DNA of 64,000 nucleotides from Phaeacidiphilus oryzae TH49. Lineage in GTDB: Bacteria; Actinomycetota; Actinomycetes; Streptomycetales; Streptomycetaceae. The notes below the pieces were generated by a model. The model saw nothing but the letters and a program-made list of their open reading frames with translations, ran no database searches and had not been told where the DNA came from. Of this stretch, positions 4,659-26,127 are shown one piece after another. The stretch's first letter is position 1. Every line of letters starts with the position of its first letter. The stretch covers positions 6,529,801 to 6,593,800 of the forward strand of contig NZ_JQMQ01000005.1 in the NCBI RefSeq assembly GCF_000744815.1. The letters run 5' to 3'. The position numbers and the translations under genes were made by a program.

Positions 4659-4823
4659 CGGGGAGTCCTTTCCTCCGGTAGCCGTGGACCGTGACCGGTC
4701 CCGCACATGACAGTGACGCAGCGGAGGGGAAAGGTACTGGAGAGCCCCGGTGAACAGTCAGTCAACCCCTGCTATCGGTAGATGACTTGAGGGACCCAGG
4801 CCGGGTAGGGCACGGCCCGGGCC

Positions 4824-7849: not shown

Positions 7850-8830
7850 ATGGCCAACACCAGCACCCGGACCCTGCGACTGCTGTCCCTGCTGCAGACC
7901 CATCGGTACTGGCCGGGAGCCGAGCTCGCCGAGCGGCTCGGGGTGTCCCCGCGCACCCTGCGCCGGGACGTGGAGCGGCTGCGCGAACTCGGCTATCCGG
8001 TCGAGGCGCAGCGCGGCGTCGACGGCGGCTACCAGCTGGCGGCGGGTGCCGCGCTGCCGCCGCTGGTGATCGACGACGAGGAGGCGGTCGCCCTCGCGGT
8101 GAGCCTCCAGGGCGCCGCCGAGGGGGCGGTGGACGGGGTGGCCGAGGCGTCCCTGCGCGCCCTGGCCAAGGTGGTGCAGGTGATGCCGGCCCGGCTGCGG
8201 CGCCGGGTGGAGGCGCTGCGCTCGATGACCGTGCCCGGTGAGTGGGGCGCGCCGGTGCGCCATGACGTCGACCCCGGCGTCCTCACCGCGCTCGCCCTGG
8301 CCTGCCGGGACGACGAGCGGCTGCGCTTCTCGTACACCGCGGCCGACGGCCGGGGCGGTGAGCGCGAGGTCGAGCCGCACCGGCTGGTCCGCCTCGGCCG
8401 CCGCTGGTACCTGGTGGCCTACGACCTCGGCCGGCAGGACTGGCGGACCTTCCGCGTCGACCGGGTCGCAGAGCAGCGCGGCACCGGCGTGCGGTTCCGG
8501 CAGCGCGCCCTCCCCGCCGAGGACGCGGCCGCCTTCGTCCGCGGCCGGATCGAGGGCCTGCCGGGGCAGTACCGGGTGGAGGTGCTGGTCGAGGCGCCGG
8601 CGGCGCGGGTGGGCGAGCGGGTCGGGCGGTGGGGCACCGTCGAGGAGTCGGACGGCCCCGACGCCGGCCGGCGCTGCCGGCTGCGGATGACCGCCGACTC
8701 GCTGGACTGGCCCGCGATGCTGCTGGGCTCGATCGGCGCCGAGTTCACCGTCCTCCAGCCCCCCGAACTGCTCGAACTGGTACGGGAATGGGGTGAACGT
8801 TTCGGCCGGGCGAACGTACCCGGGCGTTGA
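7850..8830 (+). CDS. YafY-type HTH-WYL transcriptional regulator
   Basis: A 326-residue cytoplasmic regulator. The N-terminal winged helix-turn-helix reads LLSLLQTHRYWPGAELAERLGVSPRTLRRDVERL. A WYL ligand-sensing domain follows in the middle (FSYTAADG...HRLVRLGRRWYLVAYDL), with a C-terminal WCX-like extension. ATG 7850 is chosen, but ATG 7841, nine bases upstream and in frame, is equally possible because neither has a well-placed ribosome site. It is divergent from the DinB gene, an arrangement I know from other streptomycetes. Confidence 0.9.
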   Translation: MANTSTRTLRLLSLLQTHRYWPGAELAERLGVSPRTLRRDVERLRELGYPVEAQRGVDGGYQLAAGAALPPLVIDDEEAVALAVSLQGAAEGAVDGVAEASLRALAKVVQVMPARLRRRVEALRSMTVPGEWGAPVRHDVDPGVLTALALACRDDERLRFSYTAADGRGGEREVEPHRLVRLGRRWYLVAYDLGRQDWRTFRVDRVAEQRGTGVRFRQRALPAEDAAAFVRGRIEGLPGQYRVEVLVEAPAARVGERVGRWGTVEESDGPDAGRRCRLRMTADSLDWPAMLLGSIGAEFTVLQPPELLELVREWGERFGRANVPGR

Positions 8831-8974
8831 TTGCCCGCCGAAACCACTAGCAGAGAGTGACGCGGATCGTCCCCGGATCGCGGAAACGGCACTCGACGGG
8901 TTGTCGCCCGTTAGGGTTACGGCCCTCCCCCGAAGTTGTGGTGCGGGGGTGAACGAGTGGTGGGGGTAAGGGCA

Positions 8975-9361
8975 GTGCAAGAGGTGAAGGCCTGTCTCGC
9001 AGATGCCATGGGCATAGTCGGCGCACTGGGCGTGCTGCTGGTCGACTGGACGAGCGGGCTGGCCCTGGAGTCGGTCGGGGACGTGATGGAGGCCTCCGGC
9101 GAGTCGTCGGCCGCCTACGCCTCCGATCTGGCGCGGACGGTGCTGCTGCGGCGGCCGCGCGGCGACCGGGTCTCGGACGCCGCGCGGACCGAGGACGTGA
9201 TAGTCAGCAGTGCCGGCGTCTACCACCTGATCAGGTTCGTCAAGGCACCGTTCACCGGGGGACTGCTGCTCTACCTGGTACTCGATCGGGAGGCGGCCAA
9301 TCTGGCGCTGGCCCGGCACCGCCTCGCGGCGATCTCGGATCGGCTGGTGGACACGCCATGA
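8975..9361 (+). CDS. Roadblock/LC7-fold protein
   Basis: A 128-residue protein with the roadblock pattern seen in actinobacterial GTPase partners: MGIVGALGVLLVDWTSGLALE at the start and VYHLIRFVKAPFTGGLLLYLVLD near the end. It resembles the protein encoded at 10803 closely enough by eye to be a paralogue. The GTG 8975 start is a choice; an in-frame GTG at 8957 is possible. Its stop overlaps the next start in ATGA, indicating translational coupling. It is the first gene of a four-gene operon. Confidence 0.75.
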   Translation: MQEVKACLADAMGIVGALGVLLVDWTSGLALESVGDVMEASGESSAAYASDLARTVLLRRPRGDRVSDAARTEDVIVSSAGVYHLIRFVKAPFTGGLLLYLVLDREAANLALARHRLAAISDRLVDTP

Positions 9362-10257
9362 CCGAACCGCGGACGGGGACCACGGCACTGCTGCCGCGCC
9401 GCCCCGGGCTCCCCGAGGGGGACTCGCCGGCCGGCGACCTCGCGGCGCAGCTCGGCGAGCTCGGCGCGCGCCGGGCCACCGGGGCACTGGAGGGCGACGC
9501 CGGCACTCTCTACCTGATCGACGGCGCGATCACCGGGGCACAGAGCCGGCTCGCGGTCGACAGCGCGCCGGCCGGCGGGGGCTCCGCCGCGGAACTGCGG
9601 AGGCTGACCGCCTTCCTGGACGCGGCGTTCTTCGCCTGCTCCGGCGCCACCGGGGCACTGCGGTTCCTGGACGGCGTCCCGTCGCCCGTCCCGCCCGCGG
9701 TGTCCCTCCCGGCCCGGGTGTTCCACCGCACCATCGCCCGGCGGCGGGTGCTGCTCCAGCAGATCTGGCCGTGGCCCGCGCTCGACCTGTCGGCGGTCCG
9801 GCCGCGGCCGGAGGCCTGCGCCGAGGGGCTGGGGCGGTGCCCCGACTCCTGGCGGGCGGTCGTCCAGGCCGCGGACGGCCACCGGACACCGCCGGAGATA
9901 GCCCGGCTGCTCGCCCGGTCGGCGTTCAGCACCGTGCTGGACGTCCGGCGGATGGCCGCGGCCGGACTGGTCGAGACGCCCGGGATCGGAGCCGGAAACG
10001 CGCCCGGGACCGAGGCCGGGGCAGTGCCCGGCATGGCGTCCGGCACGGCGTCCGGTGCGGCCTCCGGCTCCGCGCCGGGAGGCACGGCGTCCGGCGCGCC
10101 GGTCCGCGCGGACCCGACCGCGCACATGCCCGCCGAGGCGAGAGCGGCGGGCGCGAGGCGGCCCTCGCCGCCCGGGCCGGTGGGCTCCGGCGCGTTCGCC
10201 GACCCCACCGCCGCGCTGCTGCTGCGGCTGCGGGTGGCCCTGGAAGAGCGACTGTGA
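9358..10257 (+). CDS. Winged-helix-like protein with Gly/Ala-rich linker in a roadblock operon
   Basis: A 299-residue protein I cannot assign firmly. The N-terminal 110 residues (DLAAQLGELGARRATGALE, LYLIDGAITGAQ) resemble the DUF4388-type beta fold. Residues about 160-200 (SWRAVVQAADGHRTPPEIARLLARS, MAAAGLVE) look like a winged helix. A low-complexity Gly-Ala-Ser-Pro stretch follows (about 205-245), then a short C-terminal helix rich in Leu/Arg. The coupled position between roadblock genes suggests it is the effector or adaptor of that module. Confidence 0.6.
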   Translation: MTEPRTGTTALLPRRPGLPEGDSPAGDLAAQLGELGARRATGALEGDAGTLYLIDGAITGAQSRLAVDSAPAGGGSAAELRRLTAFLDAAFFACSGATGALRFLDGVPSPVPPAVSLPARVFHRTIARRRVLLQQIWPWPALDLSAVRPRPEACAEGLGRCPDSWRAVVQAADGHRTPPEIARLLARSAFSTVLDVRRMAAAGLVETPGIGAGNAPGTEAGAVPGMASGTASGAASGSAPGGTASGAPVRADPTAHMPAEARAAGARRPSPPGPVGSGAFADPTAALLLRLRVALEERL

Positions 10258-10294
10258 AGGCGGCGCTGGTATGCGAGAAGGGCAGGCTGACCCC

Positions 10295-10795
10295 ATGATC
10301 CGGCGACGCCGTCCCAAGGAGGGCGGGGCGGGCGCGGGCCGCACCAGGCAGAAGGCCGCCCCGCAGGCCTCGGGCCAGGGGGTGCTGGAGGCGCTCCCCA
10401 ATCTGCAGAGCGAGCTGAAGTCGGTGCGGACGGCGATCCCGGAGATGACCGGCGGTCTGGTCGCGACCACCGGAGGAGTGGTGCTCGCCCACGACACGGA
10501 CGGTCTGGAACCGGCCGGGGTGGCCGAACTCACCGCGGCCGCGCTGAACATCAGCGCACGGCTCGCCGAGGCCACCGGCCAGGGCACCTTCCTGGAGCTG
10601 ATCACCCGGGGCGAACGCGGCTACATCGCCACCTACGCGGCGGGCGCGCTCGTCGTGCTGACCCTGTTCGCGGGGCCGGACGCCAACCTCGGGCTACTGA
10701 ACTTCGAGGCACGCCGAGTGGGCACGCGCATCGCGGCCCAGACAGAGGCGCTGCTTCGACAGTCCGCAATGGACGATTCGAAGAGAGGACAGTGA
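10295..10795 (+). CDS. Roadblock/LC7 domain protein with basic N-terminus
   Basis: A 166-residue protein. It starts with a basic segment (MIRRRRPKEGGAGAGRTRQK), followed by a roadblock domain (GGLVATTGGVVLAHD; VAELTAAALNISARLAEATGQG; YAAGALVVLTLFAGPDANLGLLNFEARRVG). It is the most divergent of the three roadblock proteins here. ATG 10295 follows GAAGGGCAGG; an in-frame ATG at 10271 would add eight residues. It ends 7 bp before the next gene. Confidence 0.78.
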   Translation: MIRRRRPKEGGAGAGRTRQKAAPQASGQGVLEALPNLQSELKSVRTAIPEMTGGLVATTGGVVLAHDTDGLEPAGVAELTAAALNISARLAEATGQGTFLELITRGERGYIATYAAGALVVLTLFAGPDANLGLLNFEARRVGTRIAAQTEALLRQSAMDDSKRGQ

Positions 10796-10802
10796 CAACC
10801 AC

Positions 10803-11177
10803 ATGGCCAGCATCGAAACCGCACTCAAGGACGCGATGACCGCGATCGACGGCGCCCTCGGCGTCGCCCTCGTGGACTACAACAGCGGAATGGCCCTCGG
10901 AACCCTCGGGGGTGGGCCGGAGCTCGACCTGAGCGTCGCGGCCGCGGGCAATACCGACGTCGTGCGCGCCAAGATGCGCACGATCGAGATGCTCAAGCTC
11001 ACCGAGAACATCGAGGACATGCTGATCACCCTCAGCACCCAGTACCACCTGATCCGCCCGCTCACCAGCCGCTCCGGCAAGGGGATGTTCCTCTACCTGG
11101 CGCTGGACAAGGGCCGGGCGAACCTGGCGATGGCCCGGCACCAGATCCGCACCATCGAGTCGGACCTGGAGGTCTGA
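10803..11177 (+). CDS. Roadblock/LC7-fold protein
   Basis: A 124-residue protein, last gene of the roadblock operon. It has ALGVALVDYNSGMALGTLGGG and TQYHLIRPLTSRSGKGMFLYLALDKGRANLAMARHQI, each segment matching the protein at 8975. Members of this family bind MglA/Cvn-type small GTPases or regulate their cycle. No GTPase is encoded in this operon; the nearest is cvnD at 17.9 kb. Confidence 0.85.
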   Translation: MASIETALKDAMTAIDGALGVALVDYNSGMALGTLGGGPELDLSVAAAGNTDVVRAKMRTIEMLKLTENIEDMLITLSTQYHLIRPLTSRSGKGMFLYLALDKGRANLAMARHQIRTIESDLEV

Positions 11178-11201
11178 ACGGGTCGCGCACCCGCTCGGCC
11201 C

Positions 11202-11242
11202 CGGCGGGGCGGCCGCACTCCAGGAGTGCGGCCGCCCCGCCG
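11202..11242. terminator. Perfect 20-bp inverted repeat, bidirectional terminator
   Basis: Arms 11202-11221 and 11223-11242 are perfectly complementary around one central base. It lies between the convergent stops of the roadblock operon and the terpene synthase. Confidence 0.8.
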
Positions 11243-11247
11243 TCCGC

Positions 11248-12225
11248 TCAGCCCGCGTACCGGGCGTGGGCGATGTGCCAGGCGTAGGAGTGGACGACGG
11301 CGCCGAGGCGGGCCGCGTAGCCGGCCAGCGGCCCGGCCGGGTCCGCGGTGAGCTCCCCGATCAGGGCACGGGCCTCGGCGGCCCGCTCCTCGCACATCCG
11401 GGAGGCCTCGGCGAAGGCCTCCGGCAGGGAGCAGCGGCGGGCGTTCCGCAGCACGGTCGGCAGGCTGAGCGGCTCGGCGGCCCGGCGCCGCTCGCGGCGG
11501 TAGGAGGCCAGGTCGTTGAGCCAGCCGGCGAGGTCGCAGACGGCCTCCCGCAGCCGCCGGGCCGGCTCCGACTCGAGGGCCCGCTCGCCGGCCGGGTCCG
11601 GCGCCAGCACCTCGGCCATGGTGGCGGCGGCCGGGGCCAGCACGGTGTACCGACGGAGCGTCAGGTACTCCGCGAGCGGCACGGATTCGGGATCGGACAG
11701 GACGTGCGCCTCCCACACCGTGGCGGTCAGGGTGTCCCGCAGGTCGCCGGCGAGCCGGTGGCGGAGGGCAGGACCGGCCCGCTCCCGCAGCCGGGCCAGG
11801 AGATCGGCGAGGGCCGCCCCGAAGGGATCGTCCGCCGGCCCGGCCGGGCCGCCGCCGAGTACCGGAAGCAGCCCGGCGATCCGCCGCACGTACGCCGCCG
11901 GGTCGGCCGCCGCGGCCGTCTCGGCGTGGGTGTCGTCCAGGGCGACGAACCAGACGAACAGCGCGGCGGCCAGTGCCAGTCCGTCCGGGTCGGCCTCCGG
12001 ATAGGTGACGGCGACGCCCCGGCAGGTGATGTCCCGGAGCGCCTCGGCCGCGGCCGGCTCCAGCAGCGGGAAGCGGGCCAGCCACCGCCCGGTCTCGGCG
12101 GCGGCGTACCCGGCGTGCGGGCTCTTCGGAAAGGGCCCGGGGAAGGTGCGGCCGAGGTCGGGCAGGACCGGCTCGTCCGGCTCGTCCGGCTCGTCCGGCT
12201 CGGCTCGGCCGGCCGGCGCGGTCAC
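11248..12225 (-). CDS. Class I terpene synthase (labdane-type diterpene synthase by context)
   Basis: A 325-residue class I terpene synthase, which ionises an allylic diphosphate with Mg2+. The Asp-rich motif DDTHAE is at residues 97-102 and the NSE triad NDLASYRRE at 237-245, both intact. The N-terminus carries an EPD tandem repeat. GTG 12225 overlaps the TGA of the upstream P450 gene, so translation is coupled. It is the last gene after GGPP synthase, a class II cyclase and a P450. It therefore probably removes the diphosphate from the bicyclic product of the class II enzyme. The order matches, as I remember it, cldABCD of cyslabdan biosynthesis. Confidence 0.88.
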   Translation of the reverse strand: MTAPAGRAEPDEPDEPDEPVLPDLGRTFPGPFPKSPHAGYAAAETGRWLARFPLLEPAAAEALRDITCRGVAVTYPEADPDGLALAAALFVWFVALDDTHAETAAAADPAAYVRRIAGLLPVLGGGPAGPADDPFGAALADLLARLRERAGPALRHRLAGDLRDTLTATVWEAHVLSDPESVPLAEYLTLRRYTVLAPAAATMAEVLAPDPAGERALESEPARRLREAVCDLAGWLNDLASYRRERRRAAEPLSLPTVLRNARRCSLPEAFAEASRMCEERAAEARALIGELTADPAGPLAGYAARLGAVVHSYAWHIAHARYAG

Positions 12226-13655
12226 GAGGCCTCCCGGACCGGCTGCGGCCCCTGCTCGGCGGCCGTCGGCGAACCGCCGTACGCCCGCCGGGCCCTGGCC
12301 TCCAGACGCATGGTGAGCGGCGCCGGGTGGACGGTGATCTCGGGGACCGCGCGGACCTCCGCCCCGGTGTCCCGCAGCCGCCAGCGGGCCGCGATCACGG
12401 CCACCAGCACCACCGCCTCGGCCAGGCTGAACTGGTCGCCGATGCACATCCGCTTGCCCGCGCCGAACGGGACGTAGGCCCCGCGCGGCGGCTGGGGGCG
12501 CTCCGGCAGCCAGCGGTCCGGGTCGAAGCGCAGCGGCTCCGGGTAGTACGCGGGATCGCGGTGGAGGGCGTACGGGCTCCACAGGATGTCGGCCCCGGCC
12601 GGGAGCTCCCAGTCGCCCAGCCGGACCGGGTGCCGGGTGCGCCGGGTGACGATCCAGCCCACATGGTGCAGCCGCAGGGTCTCGTCCACCAGCCGCCGGG
12701 TGAAGGCGAGTTCGGGCAGGCGGTCGGCGGTGATCGGTCCGCCGGCGAGCACCGTGTCGACCTCCTCGTGCAGCCGCCGCTCGTACTCGGGATGCCGGGC
12801 GAGCTCGTGGAAGAGCCAGCCCAGGGTGACGGCGGTGGTCTCGGTGCCGGCCGCGAGGAAGGCCGTCATCTCGGCCAGCACCTCCTCGTTGGGCAGCTGC
12901 CGGCCCTCCTCGTCGCGGGCCGCCAGGAGGAGGCTGACCAGGTCCTGGTAGCGGTCGGGGTGCGCCCGGTGGCGCTCGATGACCTGGCTGAAGTGGGTGT
13001 GGACGGTGTCGGTGACCCGGCGGATCCGCCGGTTGCGGGGGGTCGGCACCCACTTCGGGGGGGCGATGGGGGTGAAGACCCGGCGGATCGCGGCGCGGAA
13101 GATGCCGTCCACGCCGATCAGGATCTCCTCCGCCCGCTCACGCTCCGGGGAGTCGCTGTACAGGACGTCCATCACGACGTCCTGGGTCATCCGCTGGAGG
13201 CGGTGGAGGAGGTCGAAGGTCTCGCCGTCGCGCCAGTCGGCGGTCTCCTTCTCCGCGGTCCGCCGCATCCCCTCGACGTACCCGGCGACCTGGGCGCGGT
13301 GGAAGGCGGGCTGGAGGAGGCGGCGGCGGGTGAGGTGCTCCCTGCCGTCGGCGATGGGCAGGGTGTTCTCCCCGAAGAGGCGGAGTTTGTCGCCCAGGCG
13401 GCCCTTGTCGAAGGCGTCCGCCTGGGAGGTGAGCATGGCGTGGAGCAGCTCCGGGCCGTTGACCACATAGGCCGGGATGGGACCGAACCGCACCTGGACC
13501 AGCGGCCCGTCCCGGCGCACCCGCTGGAAGAAGCCCAGCCGGTCGCGGAGGAAGGGCAGGACGTGGCCGAGGACGGGTCCGGCGCCGGAGGCGTGCGGGA
13601 CGGCGCGGGCGGTGGGGGAGGCGGAGGGCGTGCCGGGGGTCGGGGCGGAGGGCAT
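12222..13655 (-). CDS. Cytochrome P450 of the diterpene cluster
   Basis: A 477-residue P450. The I-helix motif AGTETTA, K-helix ETLR and haem loop FGAGKRMCIG (near residue 397) are intact, so it should be a working monooxygenase. The sequence resembles bacterial terpenoid hydroxylases (CYP102/CYP4-like type with HRDPAYYPEPLRFDPDRW). ATG 13655 follows AGGAAAGG. It lies between the class II cyclase and the class I synthase in the same operon and probably oxidises the labdane skeleton. The redox partner is not in the window. Confidence 0.92.
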   Translation of the reverse strand: MPSAPTPGTPSASPTARAVPHASGAGPVLGHVLPFLRDRLGFFQRVRRDGPLVQVRFGPIPAYVVNGPELLHAMLTSQADAFDKGRLGDKLRLFGENTLPIADGREHLTRRRLLQPAFHRAQVAGYVEGMRRTAEKETADWRDGETFDLLHRLQRMTQDVVMDVLYSDSPERERAEEILIGVDGIFRAAIRRVFTPIAPPKWVPTPRNRRIRRVTDTVHTHFSQVIERHRAHPDRYQDLVSLLLAARDEEGRQLPNEEVLAEMTAFLAAGTETTAVTLGWLFHELARHPEYERRLHEEVDTVLAGGPITADRLPELAFTRRLVDETLRLHHVGWIVTRRTRHPVRLGDWELPAGADILWSPYALHRDPAYYPEPLRFDPDRWLPERPQPPRGAYVPFGAGKRMCIGDQFSLAEAVVLVAVIAARWRLRDTGAEVRAVPEITVHPAPLTMRLEARARRAYGGSPTAAEQGPQPVREAS

Positions 13656-13738
13656 GGCGGGCGACCTTTCCTGGTGCCGGTGGCGCGGACGGTGCGCGGG
13701 CTGCGTCTGGTGGGTGCCGGTGCCGGTGCCGGTGCCGG

Positions 13739-15394
13739 TCACTCGGCGGCGGCCGGGGCGGCCGGAGCCGCGAGGGCGGGGCTTGCGGCGGTTGCTCCGG
13801 TTGCGGCGAGTGCGGCGAGGATCTCGGCGCGGATCATGGCGAGGGGCGCGTAGAGGGTCTTGTCGTGCCACAGCGCGGGGTGGTGGTGGTCCGGGTCCCC
13901 GGCCGCCCGACGGAGGACCGCGCCGGCCCGGTCCAGGGCGTCCCGGCCGGCCGGCTCGGCGCCGCCGCCCGCGTACCGCAGGATCTGCACGCCGTAGGCG
14001 GTCTCCTCGGCCGTGCCCGTCCACACCCCCCAGGAGCCGTCGGGGCGTTGGCTGCCGGCCGCCCAGGCGGCGGCGCGGGCGACGGCCCGGGCGGCGCCGG
14101 GCTGATCCGCCCCGGCGAGGGCGGCGACGCAGCGCGCGGTGGCGTAGTACGGGGAGGCGTGCCACTTGTCCGGCCAGGGGCCCTCCGGGTCCTGCTGCTC
14201 GATCAGCCAGCCGCGCACCTGCCGCAGCCGGTCCGCCGCCGCCCGGTCCCGGCCGCCGACGCGGCGCAGGTGGAGGGCGAGGGCCTGGGCGGCGTGGGCG
14301 TTGGCGGTGACCGAGCCGGTGTCCTCGCCGAGGTAGCAGTCGTAGTGGCGGTCGCGGGCGAAGAGCCGCAGCGGCGCCGGGTCCGGGGCGCCGCCCGTGA
14401 GCAGCGCGGTGACCAGGGCCATCGAGGTGTCGTCCGCGTCCACCATCAGACCGGGGGCGCCGCGTACCCCGGCCGGGTGGTAGAGGCCGGCGGCCCAGCC
14501 TCCGGCCACCGTGAGTTGACGGTCCGTCAGCAGTCCGGCCCGGGCCAGCGCGGCGCCGACCCACAGGCGTTCGAAGACGGTGATCGGGGCCGCCTCCGGG
14601 AACAGGCCGCGGTAGCGGGCGGCGACCGGGGCGAGCAGCCGGGCCGCCTCCTCCCGGTCCGCCGGGCCTCCGGTGGCCGCTGCCGCGGCGGTGGCCGCGG
14701 GGGAGCTGCCCAGCAGCCGCCCGGTGGCGGGCGCGGTGGCGGGCGGGAGGTGGGCGGCGACCCCCTCGTAGGTGTGGTGGAGCTTCTCCGGGAGGTGGGC
14801 GGCCAGCACCTTGGCCGCCACCGCGGCCGGGTACTCCGACCGGTAGGCGGGCGGTGGGGCGGGCCGACCGGCGCGCAGCCACGGGCCCAGCGGCTCTGGG
14901 GCGTCCGGCTGCCGGGCCAGCGCGTCCAGTTGCCCGGCCAGGGCGGAGAAGAGCGCCGGGACCAGGATCTCCGCCGCCGCGGTGTCCGGCCAGGGCCCGG
15001 TGGACGGCAGGGCGCGGAGCGCGGCCAGGCCGTCCGCCGCCGCCCGCGCTGCCCGCGCCGCCCGCGCCGTGGACGCGAGGGCTGCCGGGGAGCCGCCGAC
15101 GGCGTCCCGGCGCACCACCGCCAGCAGCGCCTCCACCGCGCTGAGGGTCGGCAGCAGCCGGTACCGCACCGGCCCCTCGCCCCAACTCCCGTCCGCCGCC
15201 TGCCGGTCGAGGAGGTAGTCCAGCCGGGTCCGCTCGCCGGGCAGCCAGGGCGCGAGCGAGAGCACCCGGGCCGTCTCGTAGACCGAGGGGCGGACGCTGC
15301 CCCACGGGTCGCGGTCGACCGAGGCGAGGAGCGCGGCGGCGGCGCTCTCCGCCCCGGCGGGGGCGGTGGGCCGGTCCAGCGGTGCCTGCTTCAC
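13739..15394 (-). CDS. Class II diterpene cyclase (copalyl/labdanyl diphosphate synthase type)
   Basis: A 551-residue alpha-barrel cyclase. The general-acid motif DADD is at residues 319-322, marking protonation-initiated cyclisation of GGPP. QW-like repeats such as DGSWG occur at both ends, and the segment PDKWHASPYYATARCV is typical of bacterial class II diterpene cyclases. There is no DDxxD, so it does not ionise the diphosphate itself; the class I enzyme downstream would do that. GTG 15394 overlaps the stop of the GGPP synthase gene as GTGA. The C-terminus ends in an Ala/Pro-rich tail. Confidence 0.92.
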   Translation of the reverse strand: MKQAPLDRPTAPAGAESAAAALLASVDRDPWGSVRPSVYETARVLSLAPWLPGERTRLDYLLDRQAADGSWGEGPVRYRLLPTLSAVEALLAVVRRDAVGGSPAALASTARAARAARAAADGLAALRALPSTGPWPDTAAAEILVPALFSALAGQLDALARQPDAPEPLGPWLRAGRPAPPPAYRSEYPAAVAAKVLAAHLPEKLHHTYEGVAAHLPPATAPATGRLLGSSPAATAAAAATGGPADREEAARLLAPVAARYRGLFPEAAPITVFERLWVGAALARAGLLTDRQLTVAGGWAAGLYHPAGVRGAPGLMVDADDTSMALVTALLTGGAPDPAPLRLFARDRHYDCYLGEDTGSVTANAHAAQALALHLRRVGGRDRAAADRLRQVRGWLIEQQDPEGPWPDKWHASPYYATARCVAALAGADQPGAARAVARAAAWAAGSQRPDGSWGVWTGTAEETAYGVQILRYAGGGAEPAGRDALDRAGAVLRRAAGDPDHHHPALWHDKTLYAPLAMIRAEILAALAATGATAASPALAAPAAPAAAE

Positions 15395-16575
15395 GACTGC
15401 CTCCTAGTGGATGCCAGGGCTATCTCCCGCAGCGCGGCGGACACCGCGGGCGGAAGCGCACCGCTGTCGAGTGCGTCCAGCGCCGCCTTGTAGCGGTCAG
15501 TGATCATGTCCTCGGCGGTGCTCCGGGCGCCGGTGGCGTCCACGATCCGCCGGATCCGGCCGGCCTCCGCCTCGGTGAGGTCGTCGGCGCCCAGGCGGTC
15601 CCGCAGCAGCCGGAGATCGGGCCCGGTGGCCCGGTGGAGGGCGAGCGCGATCGGCACCGTGGCCTTGCCTTCCCGCAGGTCGCCGAGGCCCGCCTTGCCG
15701 GTGCGCTCCGGGTCCCCGAAGAGCCCCAGCAGGTCGTCCCGCAGCTGGTAGGCCTCGCCCAGGGGCAGCGCGTATGCCTCGCAGGCGCGCCGGACGCGGT
15801 CGGTGGCGCCGGCCGCGGCGGCGCCGGTCAGCAGCGGGCGCAGGACGGTGTAGGTGGCGGTCTTGTAGTGCAGCACCCGCAGTGCGTCCTCCACGCTGGG
15901 ACGGGCGGCGGGCCGGCCGGTGTGCACCAGGTCGAGGTACTGGCCGTAGACGATCTCGGTGCGCATCAGGTCGAGCACCGGGAGGACGCGGGAGAGCTGA
16001 CCCGGCGTCAGGCCCGCGGTGTGCAGCAGCTCGTCGGACCAGACGAGGGCGAGGTCGCCGAGGAGGAGGCCGGCCGACAGGCCGTGCGCCTCGGACCGGG
16101 GATCGTCCGGCCGACCGGCGGGGACGCGGGCGGAGGCGTGGGCGGCGGCGAGTTCGCGGTGGGCGGTGGGCCGGCCGCGGCGGAGGTCCGCGGCGTCGAT
16201 GATGTCGTCGTGGACGAGGGCGAAGGACTGGAAGAGCTCCAGGGCGGCGGCGAGCCGCAGCACCGCGTCGGGGGTCTCCCGGACGGGCCGGCCGGCGACG
16301 GATACGGATGCGGATACGGACGCGGACGCGGATGGGGATGCGGCGCCGGCGGCCGGGCCGGCCCCGGCGTGCCAGCCGACCACGCAGAGCAGGGGGCGGA
16401 TCCGCTTCCCACCGACCAGGCTGCGGCGGAGGACACCGCTGAGGGCGCCGAGTTCGGGGCCGGGGGCGGTGTCCTCCTTGGCGGTCAGGAAGTCGTCGAG
16501 CGTGGCATCGATGTCAGCGCGGATCGAGGGCAGGTCCAGATGATCGGTCGAGGTCAGGATTCCGGTGTGCGTCAA
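15391..16575 (-). CDS. Geranylgeranyl diphosphate synthase (polyprenyl synthetase family)
   Basis: A 394-residue prenyl elongase. The first Asp-rich motif HDDIID and the second LRDDLLGLFGD are both present, with GGKRIRP near the N-terminus. Context (class II diterpene cyclase next) implies a C20 product. An insertion of about 25 residues (Ala/Ser/Val repeats) between the first helices comes from a hexamer-like DNA tandem repeat at about 16296-16340. The start is TTG 16575, preceded by AGAGGA. It begins 70 bp after the CvnE P450 stop on the same strand and probably belongs to one transcript with the conservon. Confidence 0.93.
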   Translation of the reverse strand: MTHTGILTSTDHLDLPSIRADIDATLDDFLTAKEDTAPGPELGALSGVLRRSLVGGKRIRPLLCVVGWHAGAGPAAGAASPSASASVSASVSVAGRPVRETPDAVLRLAAALELFQSFALVHDDIIDAADLRRGRPTAHRELAAAHASARVPAGRPDDPRSEAHGLSAGLLLGDLALVWSDELLHTAGLTPGQLSRVLPVLDLMRTEIVYGQYLDLVHTGRPAARPSVEDALRVLHYKTATYTVLRPLLTGAAAAGATDRVRRACEAYALPLGEAYQLRDDLLGLFGDPERTGKAGLGDLREGKATVPIALALHRATGPDLRLLRDRLGADDLTEAEAGRIRRIVDATGARSTAEDMITDRYKAALDALDSGALPPAVSAALREIALASTRRQS

Positions 16576-16644
16576 CGTCGGTTCCTCTCGGGGGGCGAGG
16601 AAGAACTCAGGCGCACATGCACTCGAGGCTGTGGCACCCAGGGG

Positions 16645-17913
16645 TCAGGGGGTATCGGGTACCGCCGCGGTCCTGGCGGACCAGGGGTTGGCGACCCGGG
16701 ATTGCGGGTGGAGGGCGGTGAAGGTGACCGGCAGCGCGGACAGGCTGCGGTGGACGGGGCTCGGGCGGTAGGTCAGCTCCTCCTTGGGGACGGCGATCTC
16801 GATGTCCGGCAGAAAGCCGAGCAGCCGCTCCACGGCGGCGGTCGCCACCAGCAGAGCGGTCGACTGGGCGGGGCAGGTGTGCGGTCCGGCCGCGAAGGAG
16901 AGGTGGGCGCGCGGCCCCGAGCGCTGCCCCTCGGTGGGAGCCCCCGCGTAGGGGCAGGTGTTCGCGGCGGCGTAGGAGACCATCACCGGCGAGCCGACCG
17001 GGATCAGCACGCCGTGGAAGGCGACGTCCCGGCGCGCGATGTGGAGGGAGTAGGTGGCCAGCGGCGCGTCCGCCCAGAGGGACTCGTGGATGGCGCTCTG
17101 CACCGGCAGGCCGCCGGTGGACAGGTCGGAGAAGTACCGTTCGTCGGTGAGGAGCCGCAGCAGGGTGTTGGCGATCAGGTTGGCCAGCGGCTCGTTGCCC
17201 GCGCCGAGGGTGATCAGGACCTGGTTGACCACCTCGTCCTGGTCCAGCCCGTTCGGGTGGTCCAGGTACCAGGAGGTGAGGTCCTGGCCGCGCCGGCTCA
17301 GCTTGGAGGTGTAGAGCCGGGACAGGTAGGCCTGGAAGGTCTGGGCGCCCTTGGCCTTGTCCGACTCGTCGCCGTCCACCATCGCGGTCAGGGCGTGGAT
17401 GAGGTCGTCCGCCTCCGCGTCCGGCATGCCGAAGAGCGCGTTGAACACCATCAGCGGCAGCCGGACCGCGTACTGCGAGACCAGGTCGGCCCGGCCCTCC
17501 GCGGCGAAGCCCCGGAGCAGCTCGTCCGCGTAGCGGAAGGTGCGGCGGCGGACGTCGTCCGGGTCGAGGAGGGCGAAGCTGTCAGTGATCACGGTACGCA
17601 GCCGGTCGTGCTCCGCGCCGTCGGCGAAGAAGACCGACGGCCGCCACTCCACCATCGGCCGCACCGCACTGGTCTCCGGCACCCGGTGCAGCCACGGGCG
17701 GGTGTCCTTGCTCCAGGTCTCGGTGTCCCGCAGCAGGTCGAGGGCGGCCCGGTAGTCGGTGACGACATACGCGTGGACGCCCTCGTCGATCTCGGCCAGG
17801 CCGACCGGCCCCTGGGCGCGCAGCAGCTCGTAGCTGCGCTGCGGGTCGGCGGCGTGCTCCGGCCCGTGCAGTCGCACAGGGGTGAACGACGAGGTCGTGG
17901 TCGTTGCGGTCAC
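16645..17913 (-). CDS. cvnE: Conservon cytochrome P450 CvnE, CYP157-like, lacking the ExxR motif
   Basis: A 422-residue P450, fifth gene of the conservon. The haem Cys loop is FAAGPHTCPAQ (near residue 340). The I-helix reads GAGNEPLANLI instead of the usual AGxDT, and the K-helix reads HESLWAD (near 276), so the normally invariant Arg of ExxR is absent. The CYP157 family is known to lack ExxR, so the enzyme may still fold and bind haem. GTG 17913 overlaps the cvnD stop as GTGA. The role of P450s in conservons is not established. Confidence 0.88.
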   Translation of the reverse strand: MTATTTTSSFTPVRLHGPEHAADPQRSYELLRAQGPVGLAEIDEGVHAYVVTDYRAALDLLRDTETWSKDTRPWLHRVPETSAVRPMVEWRPSVFFADGAEHDRLRTVITDSFALLDPDDVRRRTFRYADELLRGFAAEGRADLVSQYAVRLPLMVFNALFGMPDAEADDLIHALTAMVDGDESDKAKGAQTFQAYLSRLYTSKLSRRGQDLTSWYLDHPNGLDQDEVVNQVLITLGAGNEPLANLIANTLLRLLTDERYFSDLSTGGLPVQSAIHESLWADAPLATYSLHIARRDVAFHGVLIPVGSPVMVSYAAANTCPYAGAPTEGQRSGPRAHLSFAAGPHTCPAQSTALLVATAAVERLLGFLPDIEIAVPKEELTYRPSPVHRSLSALPVTFTALHPQSRVANPWSARTAAVPDTP

Positions 17914-18554
17914 TGGGCCTCTCCGGCACGGGCTACGAGATGGGTGGACAGGGCGATGAGGGATTCCAGGCTCGAGGTGCGATCCCGGGCGTCGCACACG
18001 ACCAGGGGCGTGGACGGGGCCAGGTCGAGCTTGGACCGCACCACCTCCAGGTCGTAGTCGGGAGAGTCGGGGAAATTGTTGACCCCGACCGCGTAGTCCA
18101 ATCCGGCTTCCTCTATGAGATCCATCACCTCGAAGGAGTCGTCAAGACGGCGTGTGTCGACCAGGACGAGGGCACCCAGGGCACCTCGGGCGATGTCCTC
18201 CCAGAGCGGCAGGAACCGGCGCTGACCGGGCGTCCCGTAGAGGTAGAGGATGATCTGCGAGCCGGTGCCGGGGCCGAGGGTGAGCCGGCCGAAGTCGATG
18301 GCGACCGTGGTGGTCCGCTTGTCCTTCAGCCCGTCCAGGGAGAGGTCGTCGGCCGTGGCGGCGGCGTTCGTCATCACCTCGTCCGTGTGGAGGGTGGGGA
18401 TCTCGGACATGGTGCGGATGAAGGTGGTCTTGCCGATCCCCAGCGGGCCGGCGACCAGGATCTTCACCCGGCGGTGGGTCTCGTCCGGCAGGTAGACCGG
18501 GGCGCCGGGGCGGGCCCCGGCGCGGACCTGGTCAACGGAGGGAGAGGAGACCAT
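17910..18554 (-). CDS. cvnD: Conservon small GTPase CvnD
   Basis: A 214-residue Ras/MglA-like GTPase. P-loop GPLGIGKTT is near residue 37, a switch-like TTTVAIDFGRL follows, then LYGTPGQRRF (G3, DxxG replaced as in this family) and VGVNNFPD near G4. It is thought to cycle between the CvnA-B membrane complex and a free form. The gene starts 23 bases inside cvnC and is followed by cvnE with a GTGA overlap. Confidence 0.93.
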   Translation of the reverse strand: MVSSPSVDQVRAGARPGAPVYLPDETHRRVKILVAGPLGIGKTTFIRTMSEIPTLHTDEVMTNAAATADDLSLDGLKDKRTTTVAIDFGRLTLGPGTGSQIILYLYGTPGQRRFLPLWEDIARGALGALVLVDTRRLDDSFEVMDLIEEAGLDYAVGVNNFPDSPDYDLEVVRSKLDLAPSTPLVVCDARDRTSSLESLIALSTHLVARAGEAQ

Positions 18555-18909
18555 TGAGCACCTCCTTCAGGAGTCCGGCCGAGGGCCGCGGGGCCGTTTC
18601 GTCGGGGGCGAGTGCGTCCGGCAGCGGAACCTCCGCGCGCAGGCATCCGTCGTCGATCAGCTGGGCCGCGAGCAGCCTGCACATGCTCACCGGCAGATCG
18701 AGGTAGGCCGCGGTCTCGCTGACCGAGAGCGCCCCGCCCGAGAGGAGGTCGAGCAGCCGCTGCTGCCCGGGGGTGTGCGCGGGCCCGGGGGGCAGACCGG
18801 TGGCCCGCAGCGCGGTCAGCGGCTGGAGGCTGAACACGGTGGGGGTGACGCCGCCCTGGGCGGCGAGGTAGGACGGCACCATCCGGCGCCGGGCCGGGCC
18901 GCGGCTCAC
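18532..18909 (-). CDS. cvnC: Conservon protein CvnC (DUF742)
   Basis: A 125-residue DUF742 protein with a winged-helix-like core (VFSLQPLTALRATG, LSVSETAAYLDLPVSMCRLLAAQLIDDGCL). It ends in the conserved LLKEVLNGLLSLR. In conservons it lies between the roadblock CvnB and the GTPase CvnD and is thought to bridge or regulate them. GTG 18909 overlaps the cvnB stop as GTGA. Confidence 0.93.
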   Translation of the reverse strand: MSRGPARRRMVPSYLAAQGGVTPTVFSLQPLTALRATGLPPGPAHTPGQQRLLDLLSGGALSVSETAAYLDLPVSMCRLLAAQLIDDGCLRAEVPLPDALAPDETAPRPSAGLLKEVLNGLLSLR

Positions 18910-19358
18910 GATGTGCCGCCGTCGTCGCTGCGGGCGCCGACCGACATCAGATGCTCGCCCAGCTTCCGGGCCTGCCGGGCCATGGTGTGGGCGGCCACGC
19001 CCATCGGCATCTTGTCGGTCCCGGCGACCGCGATGAAGGCGTTCGAGGCGCTGCCGGCCGGCATCATCATGTAGATCCCGTTCTGGGTCTGCACGGTGAC
19101 GGTCTCGACCGGGGTCGAGGTCGGCGCGCCCAGCGCGGAGTTGGTCGCGGTCCTGGCCGCCCCGTGGAGGGCGGAGGACATCGCGGCGATCCCCTCGGCC
19201 TCCTCCCGGGCGAGTCCCTCCGACGCCGCCACCACCATGCCGTCCACGGACAGGATGAGGGCGTGCAGCACCCCGTTGATGTCGGTGAGCGGGTTGAGGA
19301 CCCAGGACGGGTCCTGGAGCCGCTCGCGCAGAGATGATGAGTCGCTGGTGTCGGTCAC
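18906..19358 (-). CDS. cvnB: Conservon roadblock/LC7 protein CvnB
   Basis: A 150-residue roadblock protein, presumed GTPase regulator for CvnD. Core motifs are LSVDGMVVAASEGL, AAMSSALHGAARTA, VQTQNGIYMMMPAG and VAAHTMARQARKLGEHL. It is distinct from the three roadblock proteins at 9-11 kb. GTG 19358 overlaps the cvnA stop as GTGA. Confidence 0.94.
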   Translation of the reverse strand: MTDTSDSSSLRERLQDPSWVLNPLTDINGVLHALILSVDGMVVAASEGLAREEAEGIAAMSSALHGAARTATNSALGAPTSTPVETVTVQTQNGIYMMMPAGSASNAFIAVAGTDKMPMGVAAHTMARQARKLGEHLMSVGARSDDGGTS

Positions 19359-20800
19359 TTCTCGTCCTCGCCCGAGTTCTCGGAGTTGTCGCCGTCTTCT
19401 CCGTCGGAGCGTCCGCTCCGCACGCCCTGCTGGAACTGGTCCCACACGGCCGCGGCCCGGTCCGGGTCGACCGGCCGGGCGGGCGCGGCGGCCTCCTGGG
19501 CCGCGCGGTTCCTCCTCCGCCGCTGCGGGAGGTCGTTGGCGTCGGCGGGCGGGGCCGGCTCGGAGGAGGATGCCGGCTCGGCCGGCGCGGAGGACGCGGC
19601 GGCCGGGGAGCCCGCGGATTCCCCGCCGTCCTCTCGGGCCCCGGGGCCCGCGAAGTCCTCGGGGCCGGCCGGGGCGGTGACGTGCGGGCTGCGCGGGGGC
19701 GCCGCGGTGCCCGCTGCCAGGGCGGACATCTGCTCCTCCTCGTCCATCTCGGTCAGCAGGTCGGGCGGGATGGACACCACCGCGCGGGTTCCGCCGTAGG
19801 GGGAGACCTGGCCGATCTCGATCCGGAAGCCGTGGTCGGCGGCCAGCCGGCCGCAGGCGGCGAAGCCCAGCGCGGGAGGGTCGCCGAGCTCGGTCAGCAG
19901 CAGGTCCTCGCGGTCCTCGCCGGAGACCAGGCGCCGGCCGCGGCGGATCGCCTCGGGGGTCATCCCGGTGCCCGCGTCGTCGACGACCACCGAGACCGTC
20001 CCGCTGTCCCCCTGCATCAGCGCCACCTGGACCTCCAGGTCGTCCCGGGAGTGCTCCAGGGCGTTGGCCATCAGCTCGCCGAGGGCCACCGCGAGCGGCT
20101 CGGCCACCCGGCCGGCCACGCCGGTACGGGGGTCCGGGAGCTGGGAGGTGACCTTGATCCGCTCGTAGCCGGCGAGCCGGGACTGGGCTCCGCTGACCAC
20201 CTCGGAGAGGAAGGTGTCCGGGCGGACCATCCCCGGCCAGCCGCCGCAGACGATGGCCGCGCGCTGCACCCGGCGGGCGACCTGCTCGTTGAGGTGGTCC
20301 ATCTCGAAGAAGACCCGGGCGATGTCCGGCTCGACGGACTCGGCCTTCATCTGGAGCTCGGTGATCCGCGTCTGGAGCTGGAAGAGCAGTGCCTGGATGT
20401 CGGTCGAGGCGCCGCGCAGCGCGGCCTGCGCCGAGGCGTCCACCCGGCGCCGGGACTTCTCCACCGAACCGGCCAGGAGGTCCAGTACGGACTGGCCCAG
20501 CTCGGCGGCCTCGGCCAGATCGGGGTGGAGGGGGCCGGGCACCGGAAAGCGCGAACTCTCCACATTCTGCACCTGCGCCGGAAGCCTGTTGGTCACAAGG
20601 TGGCGGAGTTCGGCAAGAAGTTGTGCGTATTTCGCCTGCGCGGAGCCGACGTCCAGCTCCGAGCGGCTCAACTCGGCCGTTCGCTCACGTAGTCTGCCCC
20701 GCAGCGCGCTTCTGGAGCGGGCCAGCAGCGCTGCTCCGGCGGCGCCGACAAGGGTCGTGCCGCCGAGTATCCCGGCGGCCGTCTCTGGTATCGAACTCAC
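19355..20800 (-). CDS. cvnA: Conservon sensor histidine-kinase-like protein CvnA
   Basis: A 481-residue membrane-associated kinase-like protein. There is one N-terminal hydrophobic segment (ILGGTTLVGAAGAALLA), then a long helical region and a GHKL ATPase domain with N-box GELMANALEHS and G1 box VVDDAGTGM. A disordered acidic/proline-rich C-terminal tail of about 130 residues follows. GTG 20800 places the membrane segment at the N-terminus. It heads the operon cvnABCDE and probably anchors CvnB-D at the membrane. Confidence 0.92.
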   Translation of the reverse strand: MSSIPETAAGILGGTTLVGAAGAALLARSRSALRGRLRERTAELSRSELDVGSAQAKYAQLLAELRHLVTNRLPAQVQNVESSRFPVPGPLHPDLAEAAELGQSVLDLLAGSVEKSRRRVDASAQAALRGASTDIQALLFQLQTRITELQMKAESVEPDIARVFFEMDHLNEQVARRVQRAAIVCGGWPGMVRPDTFLSEVVSGAQSRLAGYERIKVTSQLPDPRTGVAGRVAEPLAVALGELMANALEHSRDDLEVQVALMQGDSGTVSVVVDDAGTGMTPEAIRRGRRLVSGEDREDLLLTELGDPPALGFAACGRLAADHGFRIEIGQVSPYGGTRAVVSIPPDLLTEMDEEEQMSALAAGTAAPPRSPHVTAPAGPEDFAGPGAREDGGESAGSPAAASSAPAEPASSSEPAPPADANDLPQRRRRNRAAQEAAAPARPVDPDRAAAVWDQFQQGVRSGRSDGEDGDNSENSGEDEK

Positions 20801-21263
20801 GCTTCCCCGGCAGAGGTTCGGGGCCCGCGAGCGACGAACGGCCGCACTCCCCGCCGTGCGCCGCCCCGGGACCGGACAGTAGGTCCTGCGAACTCGCACA
20901 ATTCCCGAGCACAAAGGCTCATGCTCGTTCGCCTCATCACATCAACTTCGGCACCAAGTCTTCAACACCGGACAGAAATTGACGGTGTGCCAGTTATACA
21001 GCCTCGTTGACTCCGGGCACCACACGGCACGTCCGCGGCGGCGGTGCGCGGCGGCGGTGCGCAGCGCGGCCCGCTGCGCCGCCCTCCGGAAAAGGCCCCG
21101 TGCGCTGGACTTCTGCCCTGAGGCTGGGCCAGGGTATGGCAACCCACCGGATCATCGCGGGGTACCCGCCGCCACCACCCACGGCGGCGCCGGCCCCGTG
21201 CGCCACCGCGTCCCAGCACTGCCGAATTCCGTGACCTTCGTGCACCTCTCTAGGGGAACCCCG
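20801..21263. other. Divergent spacer upstream of the conservon-terpene array and the ABC operon
   Basis: This 463-bp region should hold the promoter of the whole minus-strand array and that of the transporter operon. There is an AT-richer patch at 20880-21005 (for example TTGACG at 20979 and TTATACA near 20994), but the spacing does not give a standard promoter. A GCGGCGGT direct repeat lies at about 21035-21060. No gene is supported. Confidence 0.45.
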
Positions 21264-22103
21264 ATGCGACCGACCAGCAGGTCCCGCCACCGCTATGCCG
21301 CCGCCACAGCCCTCGCCGCCGCCGTCGCCCTCCTGGCCACCGCCTGCAGCGCGCAGAGCCAGGAGACGACACTGTCGAACGGGGTGAAGCTGGTCAAGAA
21401 GGGCCGGCTGACCACCTGCACCCATCTCCCGTACGCGCCCTTCCAGTCCACCCAGAACGGCAAGGTGGTCGGGTTCGACGTCTCGCTGATCGACCTGGTG
21501 GCCAAGAAGCTCGGGGTGAAGCAGCAGATCATCGACACCTCCTTCGAGACCATCAAGACCGGTGCCGCGCTCGACGCCGGCAGCTGCGACATAGCCGCGG
21601 CGGGGATGACCATCACTCCGGAACGCAAGCGGCATCTGGACTTCTCCGTCCCGTACTTCGACGCCACCCAGGCGCTGATGGCCCGCAAGGGCGTCCCGGC
21701 GACCGACCTGGCCGCGGTCGAGTCGCGGAAGCTCAAGCTCGGTTCGCAGTCCTCCACCACCGGCGAGGACTACGCCAACGCCCACGGCGGCGACCCGGTC
21801 TCCTACGAGAGCTCGGACGCGGAGCTCAACGGGCTGCGGACGGGCGCGGTGGACGTGATCATCCAGGACTACCCGGTGGTCCAGAACTGGCTGAAGGACC
21901 CGGCCAACTCGTCGAAGTTCGCCCTCGCCGGCGACATCGACACCGGCGAGCAGTACGGCTTCGCGGTGAAGAAGGGCGGCAACCCCAAGCTGCTCGCCAC
22001 CGTCGACGAGGTGATCAAGCAGGCCATCGCGGACGGCGCCTACAAGAAGCTCTACGAGCAGTGGATCGGCCCGATGCCGAAGAGCGCGGGGAACATCGGA
22101 TGA
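21264..22103 (+). CDS. Amino-acid ABC transporter substrate-binding lipoprotein
   Basis: A 279-residue solute-binding protein of the polar amino acid family (SBP_bac_3). The lipoprotein signal ends in LLATAC, and the mature part contains [38 protein letters not shown] and [10 protein letters not shown], the typical ligand-binding fold segments. ATG 21264 follows AGGGGAAC. It overlaps the permease start as ATGA and forms one operon with permease and ATPase. Confidence 0.93.
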
Positions 22104-25858: not shown

Positions 25859-26127
25859 GGACCTGACTTGCCGTCAAGGCGGCTGGGGTCAGCGGTGGCT
25901 GACGGGCCGACGATAGGGGCCCGGCACAACGGATGCGTGGCCATGGCACGGTTCTGCCGGGAATCGATCGGATCATGTTCGTTCGCCGCCCGGAACGGCC
26001 CCGTATCGAGACCGAAGTGTCGGAAACACGGCCGGTTCGGACCTCTGGATCCAACCGGTGGTGCGGCTCCGTCACTCCCGGTATAGCTGGTGGCGACCAT
26101 GGCGATTTTCGACGGGGAGGCGGGGCG

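What the first reader, a model, noticed from the sequence alone, without database searches (positions are those of the whole stretch)
11248..20800. A complete conservon runs directly into a labdane-type diterpene operon
Seen: nine minus-strand genes cvnA-B-C-D-E, GGPP synthase, class II cyclase, P450 and class I synthase follow each other. Five junctions overlap as GTGA, one overlaps by 23 bases (cvnC/cvnD), and the conservon-GGPPS gap is only 70 bp. Known: conservons form membrane GTPase signalling complexes, and the order GGPPS-class II-P450-class I is, as I recall, that of cyslabdan-type clusters. Inference: the GTPase system may sense or gate diterpene production, or the CvnE P450 may have been recruited to the pathway.
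Basis: partly seen in the sequence, partly recalled or inferred. Interest (0 to 1): 0.65.

Follow-up and report, generated by a model that had tools for sequence, protein, structure and literature searches.

The report
G-protein sensor built into diterpene cluster
A bacterial membrane G-protein signalling set and the enzymes for a labdane-type diterpene sit side by side and have been inherited together as one nine-gene block in Streptomyces and its relatives, and a second, differently built pairing of the same kind exists in other actinobacteria, which suggests that some of these natural products come with their own dedicated signalling system.

Summary
Nine minus-strand genes, cvnA-B-C-D-E-GGPPS-class II cyclase-P450-class I synthase, run from 20800 to 11248; the cvnE-GGPPS gap is 69 bp. 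The linkage is not local. In a draw of 199 Streptomyces genomes, class II cyclases at least 55% identical occur in 8, CvnE proteins at least 56% identical occur in the same 8, and all 8 carry the block (one lacks the P450, one is cut by a contig end). The linked CvnD proteins form one clade (100/98), conservon and terpene genes diverge in step (Mantel r 0.96), and little beyond the nine genes is shared. The biformene synthase LrdC finds only conservon-linked homologues there (7 of 7). A second cassette (P450-class I-class II-cvnA(NIT)BCD: other order, other conservon lineage) was found in 10 of 11 loci with the related class II type, so diterpene clusters joined conservons at least twice. CvnE looks like an ordinary CYP157-like conservon subunit. 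In most relatives a conserved hairpin separates conservon and GGPPS; this window lacks it. I read it as a diterpene cluster with a dedicated G-protein sensor-switch. Signal, output and expression are untested, and related four-gene clusters reportedly work in other hosts without it.

The parts
19355..20800 (-). cvnA: sensor-kinase-like ATPase with one weak N-terminal hydrophobic segment and no extracytoplasmic sensor domain
   Evidence: Pfam HATPase_c; GTG at 20800, one segment at residues 8-27, score 1.65 against a threshold of 1.6
18906..19358 (-). cvnB: Roadblock/LC7 (MglB-like)
   Evidence: Pfam Robl_LC7 50 bits; GTGA overlap with cvnA
18532..18909 (-). cvnC: DUF742
   Evidence: Pfam DUF742 57 bits
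17910..18554 (-). cvnD: small Ras-like GTPase; in the clade of diterpene-linked CvnD proteins
   Evidence: Pfam ATP_bind_1; clade 100/98; 23-bp overlap with cvnC
16645..17913 (-). cvnE: P450-like accessory protein, CYP157-like (heme Cys kept, HESLW in place of ExxR, AGNEP in the I-helix)
   Evidence: PDB P450 matches; motif comparison; GTGA overlap with cvnD
16576..16644 (-). 69-bp conservon/diterpene junction; lacks the long hairpin of relatives, has a 7-bp stem whose 3' arm includes the likely ribosome-binding stretch
15391..16575 (-). GGPP synthase (TTG start), DDIIDAAD and DDLLG motifs
   Evidence: Pfam polyprenyl_synt 148 bits; sequence
13739..15394 (-). class II diterpene cyclase, DADD motif
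   Evidence: Pfam; best PDB match 5bp8 ent-copalyl diphosphate synthase, 328 bits
12222..13742 (-). tailoring cytochrome P450 with intact AGTETT, ETLR and FGAGKRMCIG motifs; start may be 13655
   Evidence: Pfam p450 252 bits; sequence; starts checked
11248..12225 (-). class I diterpene synthase, LrdC family
   Evidence: Pfam Terpene_syn_C_2; best PDB match 6oh6 labdane-related diterpene synthase, 231 bits

Best explanation
The nine genes are one inherited functional unit: a labdane-type diterpene gene cluster that carries its own actinobacterial G-protein signalling system (conservon). Shown: the anatomy, the two-way co-occurrence in the genomes searched, the single clade and co-divergence of the pairing, and a second pairing with another conservon lineage in other families. 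Inferred: CvnA, which has no outside sensor domain, is controlled by the P450-like CvnE, which binds a small hydrophobic signal in its heme pocket instead of catalysing a tailoring step; CvnA with CvnB and CvnC sets the GTP state of CvnD; CvnD then adjusts expression of the diterpene operon (or membrane recruitment of its enzymes). In most relatives a conserved hairpin after cvnE probably limits read-through from the conservon into the enzyme genes; in this genome the hairpin is missing and the two halves are probably co-transcribed.
For: Order conserved in 19 of 21 loci (1 contig-cut, 1 broken). In 199 Streptomyces genomes 12 have a class II match; all 8 at 55-61% carry the conservon (6 with all nine genes, 1 without the P450, 1 contig-cut) and 0 of 4 at 39-44% do; CvnE over the same draw puts the same 8 genomes at 56-64% with the next at 51%. 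Linked CvnD one clade, 100/98, 26 of 75 rows. Mantel r 0.96, 0 of 5000 permutations as high, 24 loci. Largest shared flanking family in 4 of 26 loci. On plasmids, the 20 CvnE records listed (of 66 matched) all hold the class II gene 1.39-1.43 kb away; all nine genes seen in the 4 such plasmids that I opened. Second pairing: 8 of 8 other genomes found in a 197-genome draw plus two named records, with its conservon lineage split from the first by a branch of 100/99. CvnE keeps the heme Cys in 24 of 24 linked copies, lacks the ExxR Arg in all 24, and is among the most conserved proteins of the block. CvnE/CvnF go with CvnA proteins without sensor domains (PMC13343842, passages).
Against: No expression, mutant or ligand data. 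No transcription factor lies inside the nine genes, so the output of CvnD is unknown. A review passage reports labdanes from hosts given the cld or lrd cluster (PMC10301674), so the conservon is not strictly needed for synthesis there. The hairpin in relatives argues against simple co-transcription in them. Seven more distant class II loci have no conservon within about 9 kb, including S. clavuligerus (46%) and L060, whose class II is 50% identical to that of the second cassette. Linkage and co-inheritance can also arise from shared transfer. CvnA of the window passes the membrane-segment threshold only narrowly, and 5 of 10 relatives tested show no segment with the starts that I chose.
Confidence: 0.65

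Rival explanations
1. CvnE is a diterpene-tailoring P450 recruited from a conservon, and the linkage mainly serves the pathway's chemistry.
For: CvnE lies directly upstream of GGPPS and its divergence correlates strongly with GGPPS, class II and class I (0.95-0.97; 0.83 with the operon P450). Heme Cys kept in 24 of 24 linked copies.
Against: The ExxR Arg is missing in all 24 linked copies, Pro replaces the usual I-helix Thr in 20 of 24, and L053 and L054 keep a Thr there but lack the neighbouring acid. The operon P450 has intact motifs in the 23 of 25 loci where it was found. CvnE of 23 of 28 unlinked conservons also lacks the Arg. Transformants with the cld or lrd cluster made labdanes (PMC10301674, passages; the hosts may have CvnE-like proteins of their own). 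The second cassette shows no CvnE.
Confidence: 0.13
2. CvnD acts like MglA: it recruits the diterpene enzymes or an exporter to the membrane instead of controlling transcription.
For: [quoted passage not shown] no transcription factor lies among the nine genes.
Against: Cvn8 changes transcription of gene clusters (PMC8510531, title and start of abstract; PMC13343842, passages).
Confidence: 0.13
3. The conservon is a passenger: the block was joined once by chance and has simply been moved around as one piece.
For: The linked CvnD proteins form a single clade, consistent with one joining event; the block lies on linear plasmids.
Against: The five conservon genes are kept in every linked locus that I examined, even where the P450 is missing (L049); flanks are hardly shared; another conservon lineage is joined to other labdane-type clusters in a different order.
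Confidence: 0.09

Closest known systems
Conservon (cvnABCD with cvnE), also called actinobacterial G protein system, e.g. Cvn9-Cvn12 of S. coelicolor
   Same: Gene order, domains, CvnA without sensor domain together with a P450-type CvnE, and CYP157-like loss of ExxR.
   Different: Of 28 unlinked CvnE conservons fetched, 19 show a second P450-like gene after CvnE and one (L062) was seen next to leuA; here one CvnE is followed by a diterpene operon.
lrdABDC ((E)-biformene) and cldABCD (cyslabdan) clusters of Streptomyces
   Same: LrdC is 76 and 79% identical to class I enzymes of two conservon-linked loci and 50-53% to the other five found; enzyme types agree with the window.
   Different: Described as four-gene clusters in the passages that I saw (PMC10301674); no conservon mentioned there. 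Whether the original strains carry one was not tested.
Conservon upstream of indole prenyltransferase (iptA-type) clusters
   Same: [quoted passage not shown] L087 here shows Trp_DMAT near a CvnE conservon.
   Different: Different chemistry, and L087's CvnD lies outside the diterpene-linked clade.
sat/terp1 isopimaradiene cluster of Salinispora
   Same: Class I enzyme of the second cassette matches Sat1646 at 413 bits.
   Different: The words conservon, roadblock, GTP and histidine kinase do not occur in the paper's text (PMC9814573); in the cassettes found here a conservon follows the class II gene.
Frankiamicin (fkm) cluster conservon of Frankia
   Same: A conservon inside a biosynthetic cluster (PMC4383371, passages).
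   Different: Type II polyketide cluster, not terpenoid.

Membership tests
Conservon / actinobacterial G protein system | Four syntenic genes: HATPase CvnA, Roadblock CvnB, DUF742 CvnC, small GTPase CvnD | tested here: met
   definition from PMC13343842
Conservon / actinobacterial G protein system | P-loop and TPGQ motifs in the GTPase | tested here: met
   GPLGIGKT and YGTPGQ in the window's CvnD; the same two patterns in 25 of 25 relatives
[quoted passage not shown]
   known from the title of the Cvn9 paper cited; not tested
CvnE / CYP157 group | P450 with heme Cys but without ExxR Arg, encoded after cvnD | tested here: met
   definition from PMC3599690 passages. Formal CYP naming was not done; some unlinked CvnE keep the Arg (5 of 28)
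Labdane-type diterpene cluster (cld/lrd type) | GGPPS, class II (DxDD), P450, class I (aspartate-rich and NSE motifs) in this order | tested here: met
   relatives, where my pattern for the first GGPPS motif was mis-specified and matched nothing, so that motif was read by eye in the window only
Labdane-type diterpene cluster (cld/lrd type) | Product is a labdane | not testable with these tools
   inferred from matches to LrdC and an ent-copalyl diphosphate synthase
Intrinsic terminator between the two halves | GC-rich stem followed by a U run | tested here: not met
   window: no terminator-like site there; relatives: stem supported by compensatory changes but no U run after it

The most novel reading that the evidence does not exclude
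The block is a signal-and-receptor cassette: the diterpenoid made by the four enzymes (or its precursor) is itself the ligand of the CvnE/CvnA receptor, so that actinobacteria possess diterpenoid hormones read by dedicated G-protein systems, acquired at least twice and spread in part on linear plasmids.
Probability: 0.2. Interest if true: 0.9.

Novelty: new variant of a known kind. Interest (0 to 1): 0.7.

Why it matters
Signals and targets of conservons are poorly understood (PMC13343842), and the passages that I saw on labdane clusters do not mention them. A conservon locked to one small biosynthetic operon gives a compact, movable system in which sensor, switch and target genes are probably all within about 9.6 kb. 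The second pairing, with another conservon lineage, argues that the coupling is useful in itself. Since four-gene clusters reportedly produce in other hosts, comparing such strains with and without the conservon would show directly what the G-protein system adds.

Tried and rejected
Passenger hypothesis: disfavoured by the one-clade origin, two-way co-occurrence and unshared flanks. CvnE as recruited tailoring enzyme: disfavoured. A second RNA element before GGPPS (outer and inner inverted repeats): 93% of cells pair, but there is no change on both sides and the shuffle control is not exceeded, so it may equally be a promoter or operator; not claimed. RNAalifold on free alignments gave almost no structure. 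Rfam: no match at gathering score in 10000-22000. Promoter scan: 0 found, 0.1 expected, uninformative. A general rule that CvnE conservons sit by prenyl chemistry: among 28 unlinked CvnE loci (chosen by similarity, not at random) I saw a terpene synthase or Trp_DMAT in 3 (L079, L091, L087); not every neighbour was annotated, so no claim is made. Literature: conservon with terpene, 3 papers; conservon with diterpen, 1 paper; mixed terms. I judged these by titles and starts of abstracts as not about this pairing and did not open the three. Open PMC papers only.

Many NBC plasmids look like near copies. One search used six exact 8-residue patterns and so favours close relatives. In one search the 49 unlinked CvnD rows were chosen, not at random. 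In one search I used 23 relatives (L025 and L049 lack genes and were left out), 15 relatives (near copies and rows whose stem does not align were left out), 12 linked relatives, and L059 (partial class II) was left out. Gene calls come from a crude GC-frame script of mine. The stem scan takes the longest stem anywhere in the gap and allows G-U pairs.
Full report
What is there. On the minus strand from 20800 to 11248 lie nine genes in one direction (junctions): cvnA, cvnB, cvnC, cvnD, cvnE, GGPP synthase, class II diterpene cyclase, P450 and class I diterpene synthase. Five junctions overlap as GTGA, cvnC/cvnD overlap by 23 bases, cvnE and GGPPS are 69 bp apart (16576-16644), and class II/P450 is either a sixth GTGA or an 83-bp gap, depending on the P450 start. 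The enzymes carry their motifs: DDIIDAAD and DDLLG (GGPPS), DADD (class II), AGTETT, ETLR and FGAGKRMCIG (P450), LDDTHAE and NDLASYRRE (class I). The best-scoring solved structures are an ent-copalyl diphosphate synthase for class II and a labdane-related diterpene synthase, 6oh6, for class I. I take 6oh6 to be LrdC, the (E)-biformene synthase; that identity is recalled. The window lies at G000:C5:6529801-6593800, and the genus search found only G000.

The linkage is conserved. A scan of public genome contigs with the class II protein, blind to conservon genes, returned 21 loci from Streptomyces and Kitasatospora. Of these, 19 have all nine genes in the same order, one (L025) has the first seven and then nears its contig end, and one (L028) has only class II pieces and a P450. 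In a draw of 199 genomes of one genus, inferred to be Streptomyces, 12 have a class II match. The 8 at 55-61% identity all carry the conservon upstream of GGPPS: 6 with all nine genes, one (L049) without the P450, one contig-cut. The 4 at 39-44% do not, nor do two further distant loci. CvnE searched over the same draw returned these 8 genomes at 56-64% identity, with the next at 51%; the loci of those next two, L098 and L062, hold a conservon and no diterpene gene. Eight of 8 both ways in 199 genomes is far beyond chance, though shared ancestry makes a formal probability meaningless.

One clade, inherited as a block. A tree of 75 CvnD proteins puts the 26 diterpene-linked ones in one clade (100/98) with the window inside. 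Distances of the five conservon proteins and the four terpene proteins over 24 loci correlate at r 0.96, above all 5000 permutations. Genes outside the nine are hardly shared: the largest flanking family occurs in 4 of 26 loci, at differing places (crude gene calls). In PLSDB, 29 records hold a class II match, 24 of them at 52-56%. The 20 CvnE records listed (of 66 matched) are all among those 24, with CvnE and class II 1.39-1.43 kb apart. I opened seven of the 29: the four Streptomyces ones at 52-55% have all nine genes, S. clavuligerus (46%) has the enzymes but no conservon in the 10 kb on either side, and the other two are described below. So the unit also lives on linear plasmids.

Link to known pathways. 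A review reports (E)-biformene synthase LrdC from S. thermocarboxydus K155 and says that hosts given the lrd or the four-gene cld cluster made labdanes (PMC10301674, passages). LrdC matches 7 of the 199 genomes at E 1e-40 or better, and all 7 matches are the conservon-linked class I genes, two of them at 76 and 79% identity. So close relatives of characterised enzymes sit behind a conservon. I did not test the original strains. The reported production also means that the conservon is not strictly needed in those hosts.

A second pairing. The Micromonospora zamorensis plasmid hit (38%) shows P450-class I-class II followed after 155 bp by a conservon whose CvnA has a NIT sensor domain; no CvnE is seen. 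Nonomuraea gerenzanensis, whose 11.9-Mb record PLSDB lists as a plasmid, has a homologous conservon behind its class II gene. This class II protein searched in 197 genomes of the class gave 9 hits including the window's own; all 8 others have P450, class II and the NIT conservon in this order, 7 of them with the recognisable class I gene. L125 and L131 have instead an ORF without Pfam match between class II and cvnA. The exception is L060 (G039), whose class II is 50% identical to the Micromonospora one but has no conservon nearby: 10 of 11 loci at this level are linked. The class I enzyme matches Sat1646 (413 bits), which makes isopimara-8,15-diene (PMC9814573, abstract and passages). In the CvnD tree this set is its own clade (100/97), split from the first set by a branch of 100/99. 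In the class II tree the first set is one clade (100/100) with unlinked S. clavuligerus as sister; the second set is mixed with two unlinked sequences (L057, L060), and long branches make that part unsure. Two conservon lineages, in different gene order, thus joined two labdane-type lineages. An early linkage followed by exchange of the conservon is not excluded. In all, seven distant class II loci have none within about 9 kb.

What CvnE is. All 24 linked CvnE sequences keep the heme Cys and none has the ExxR Arg; 20 have Pro where the I-helix Thr is expected, two (L029, L048) have the usual Thr, and two (L053, L054) have a Thr but lack the neighbouring acid. Of 28 unlinked CvnE, 23 lack the Arg and 20 have the Pro. 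The Arg loss is known for CYP157 (PMC3599690, passages). CvnE and GGPPS (median identity 73% each) are the most conserved proteins of the block after CvnD (77%), so CvnE is not decaying. CvnA of the window has one weak membrane segment and no outside domain; 5 of 10 relatives tested show a segment and 5 do not, in part because of the starts that I chose. This fits the report that CvnE and CvnF go with CvnA proteins lacking sensor domains and may be their sensory inputs (PMC13343842, passages). A signal-binding role is my inference.

The junction. Between cvnE and GGPPS relatives have 134-210 bp. In 18 of 25 distinct relatives this holds an uninterrupted stem of at least 13 pairs, in four (L014, L023, L053, L054) 9-11, in three (L009, L011, L019) 8-9, and in the window 7. 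On 15 aligned relatives the 15-pair stem is formed in 96.4% of cells, with 4 pairs changed on both sides; 2 of 500 shuffles reach that count and none reaches the covariation score, a control that does not remove relatedness. Folding z-scores are below -1.9 in most relatives but not in L009, L012, L019, L023, L053 and L054. There is no U run, so it is a hairpin of unproved function; a brake on read-through is my guess. A second conserved stretch before GGPPS shows no covariation.

Mechanism and standing. Shown: anatomy, conservation, one clade, co-divergence, presence on plasmids, a second pairing. Inferred: that the conservon adjusts the operon, that CvnE is the sensor, and that CvnD acts on expression. 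Conservons beside biosynthetic genes are known for indole prenyltransferases (PMC3617294, passages) and frankiamicin (PMC4383371, passages). P450s of family CYP157 have been counted in biosynthetic clusters before (PMC7369989, passages). I found no open PMC paper that joins conservon and diterpene; subscription journals were not searched. I therefore file it as a new variant of a known kind.

Noticed in passing
window 9358-11177 (+): Three plus-strand genes converge on the class I gene: a 299-aa protein without Pfam match, a Roadblock/LC7 protein (10055-10795) and a 124-aa protein that looks Roadblock-like by eye but has no Pfam match. No tblastn match to them in the 21 related loci.
   Followed up: partly
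L124 11677-15509, L125 12749-16500, L130-L137: Second diterpene-conservon cassette (P450-class I-class II-cvnA with NIT domain-B-C-D) in other actinobacterial families.
   Followed up: yes
L079 5059-7755 (own genome, G000:C5 about 1725059-1727755) and L091: Another CvnE-type conservon of the same genome is followed by a convergent class I terpene synthase (nearest NCBIfam model eudesmol synthase, below its cut-off); L091 in G302 has one nearest to selinadiene synthase in the same place.
   Followed up: partly
L087 (G208), 4097-5371: Trp_DMAT indole prenyltransferase near a CvnE conservon, in line with the iptA literature.
   Followed up: partly
L049 (G236) 8064-10694: The diterpene P450 is missing between class II and class I while the whole conservon is kept.
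   Followed up: partly
L028 (Streptomyces odonnellii): Interrupted class II match lacking about its first 172 residues, no conservon or GGPPS match in the 6.2 kb upstream, and no Pfam match in three upstream ORFs.
   Followed up: partly
L083 and L084 (own genome, G000:C5 about 2415000-2425000): Two conservons in tandem about 6 kb apart with nearly identical CvnD.
   Followed up: no
window 24815-25858 (-) and 25933-28341 (+): SpoIIE-type phosphatase gene divergent from a gene for a TPR protein with weak AAA/NB-ARC matches.
   Followed up: no
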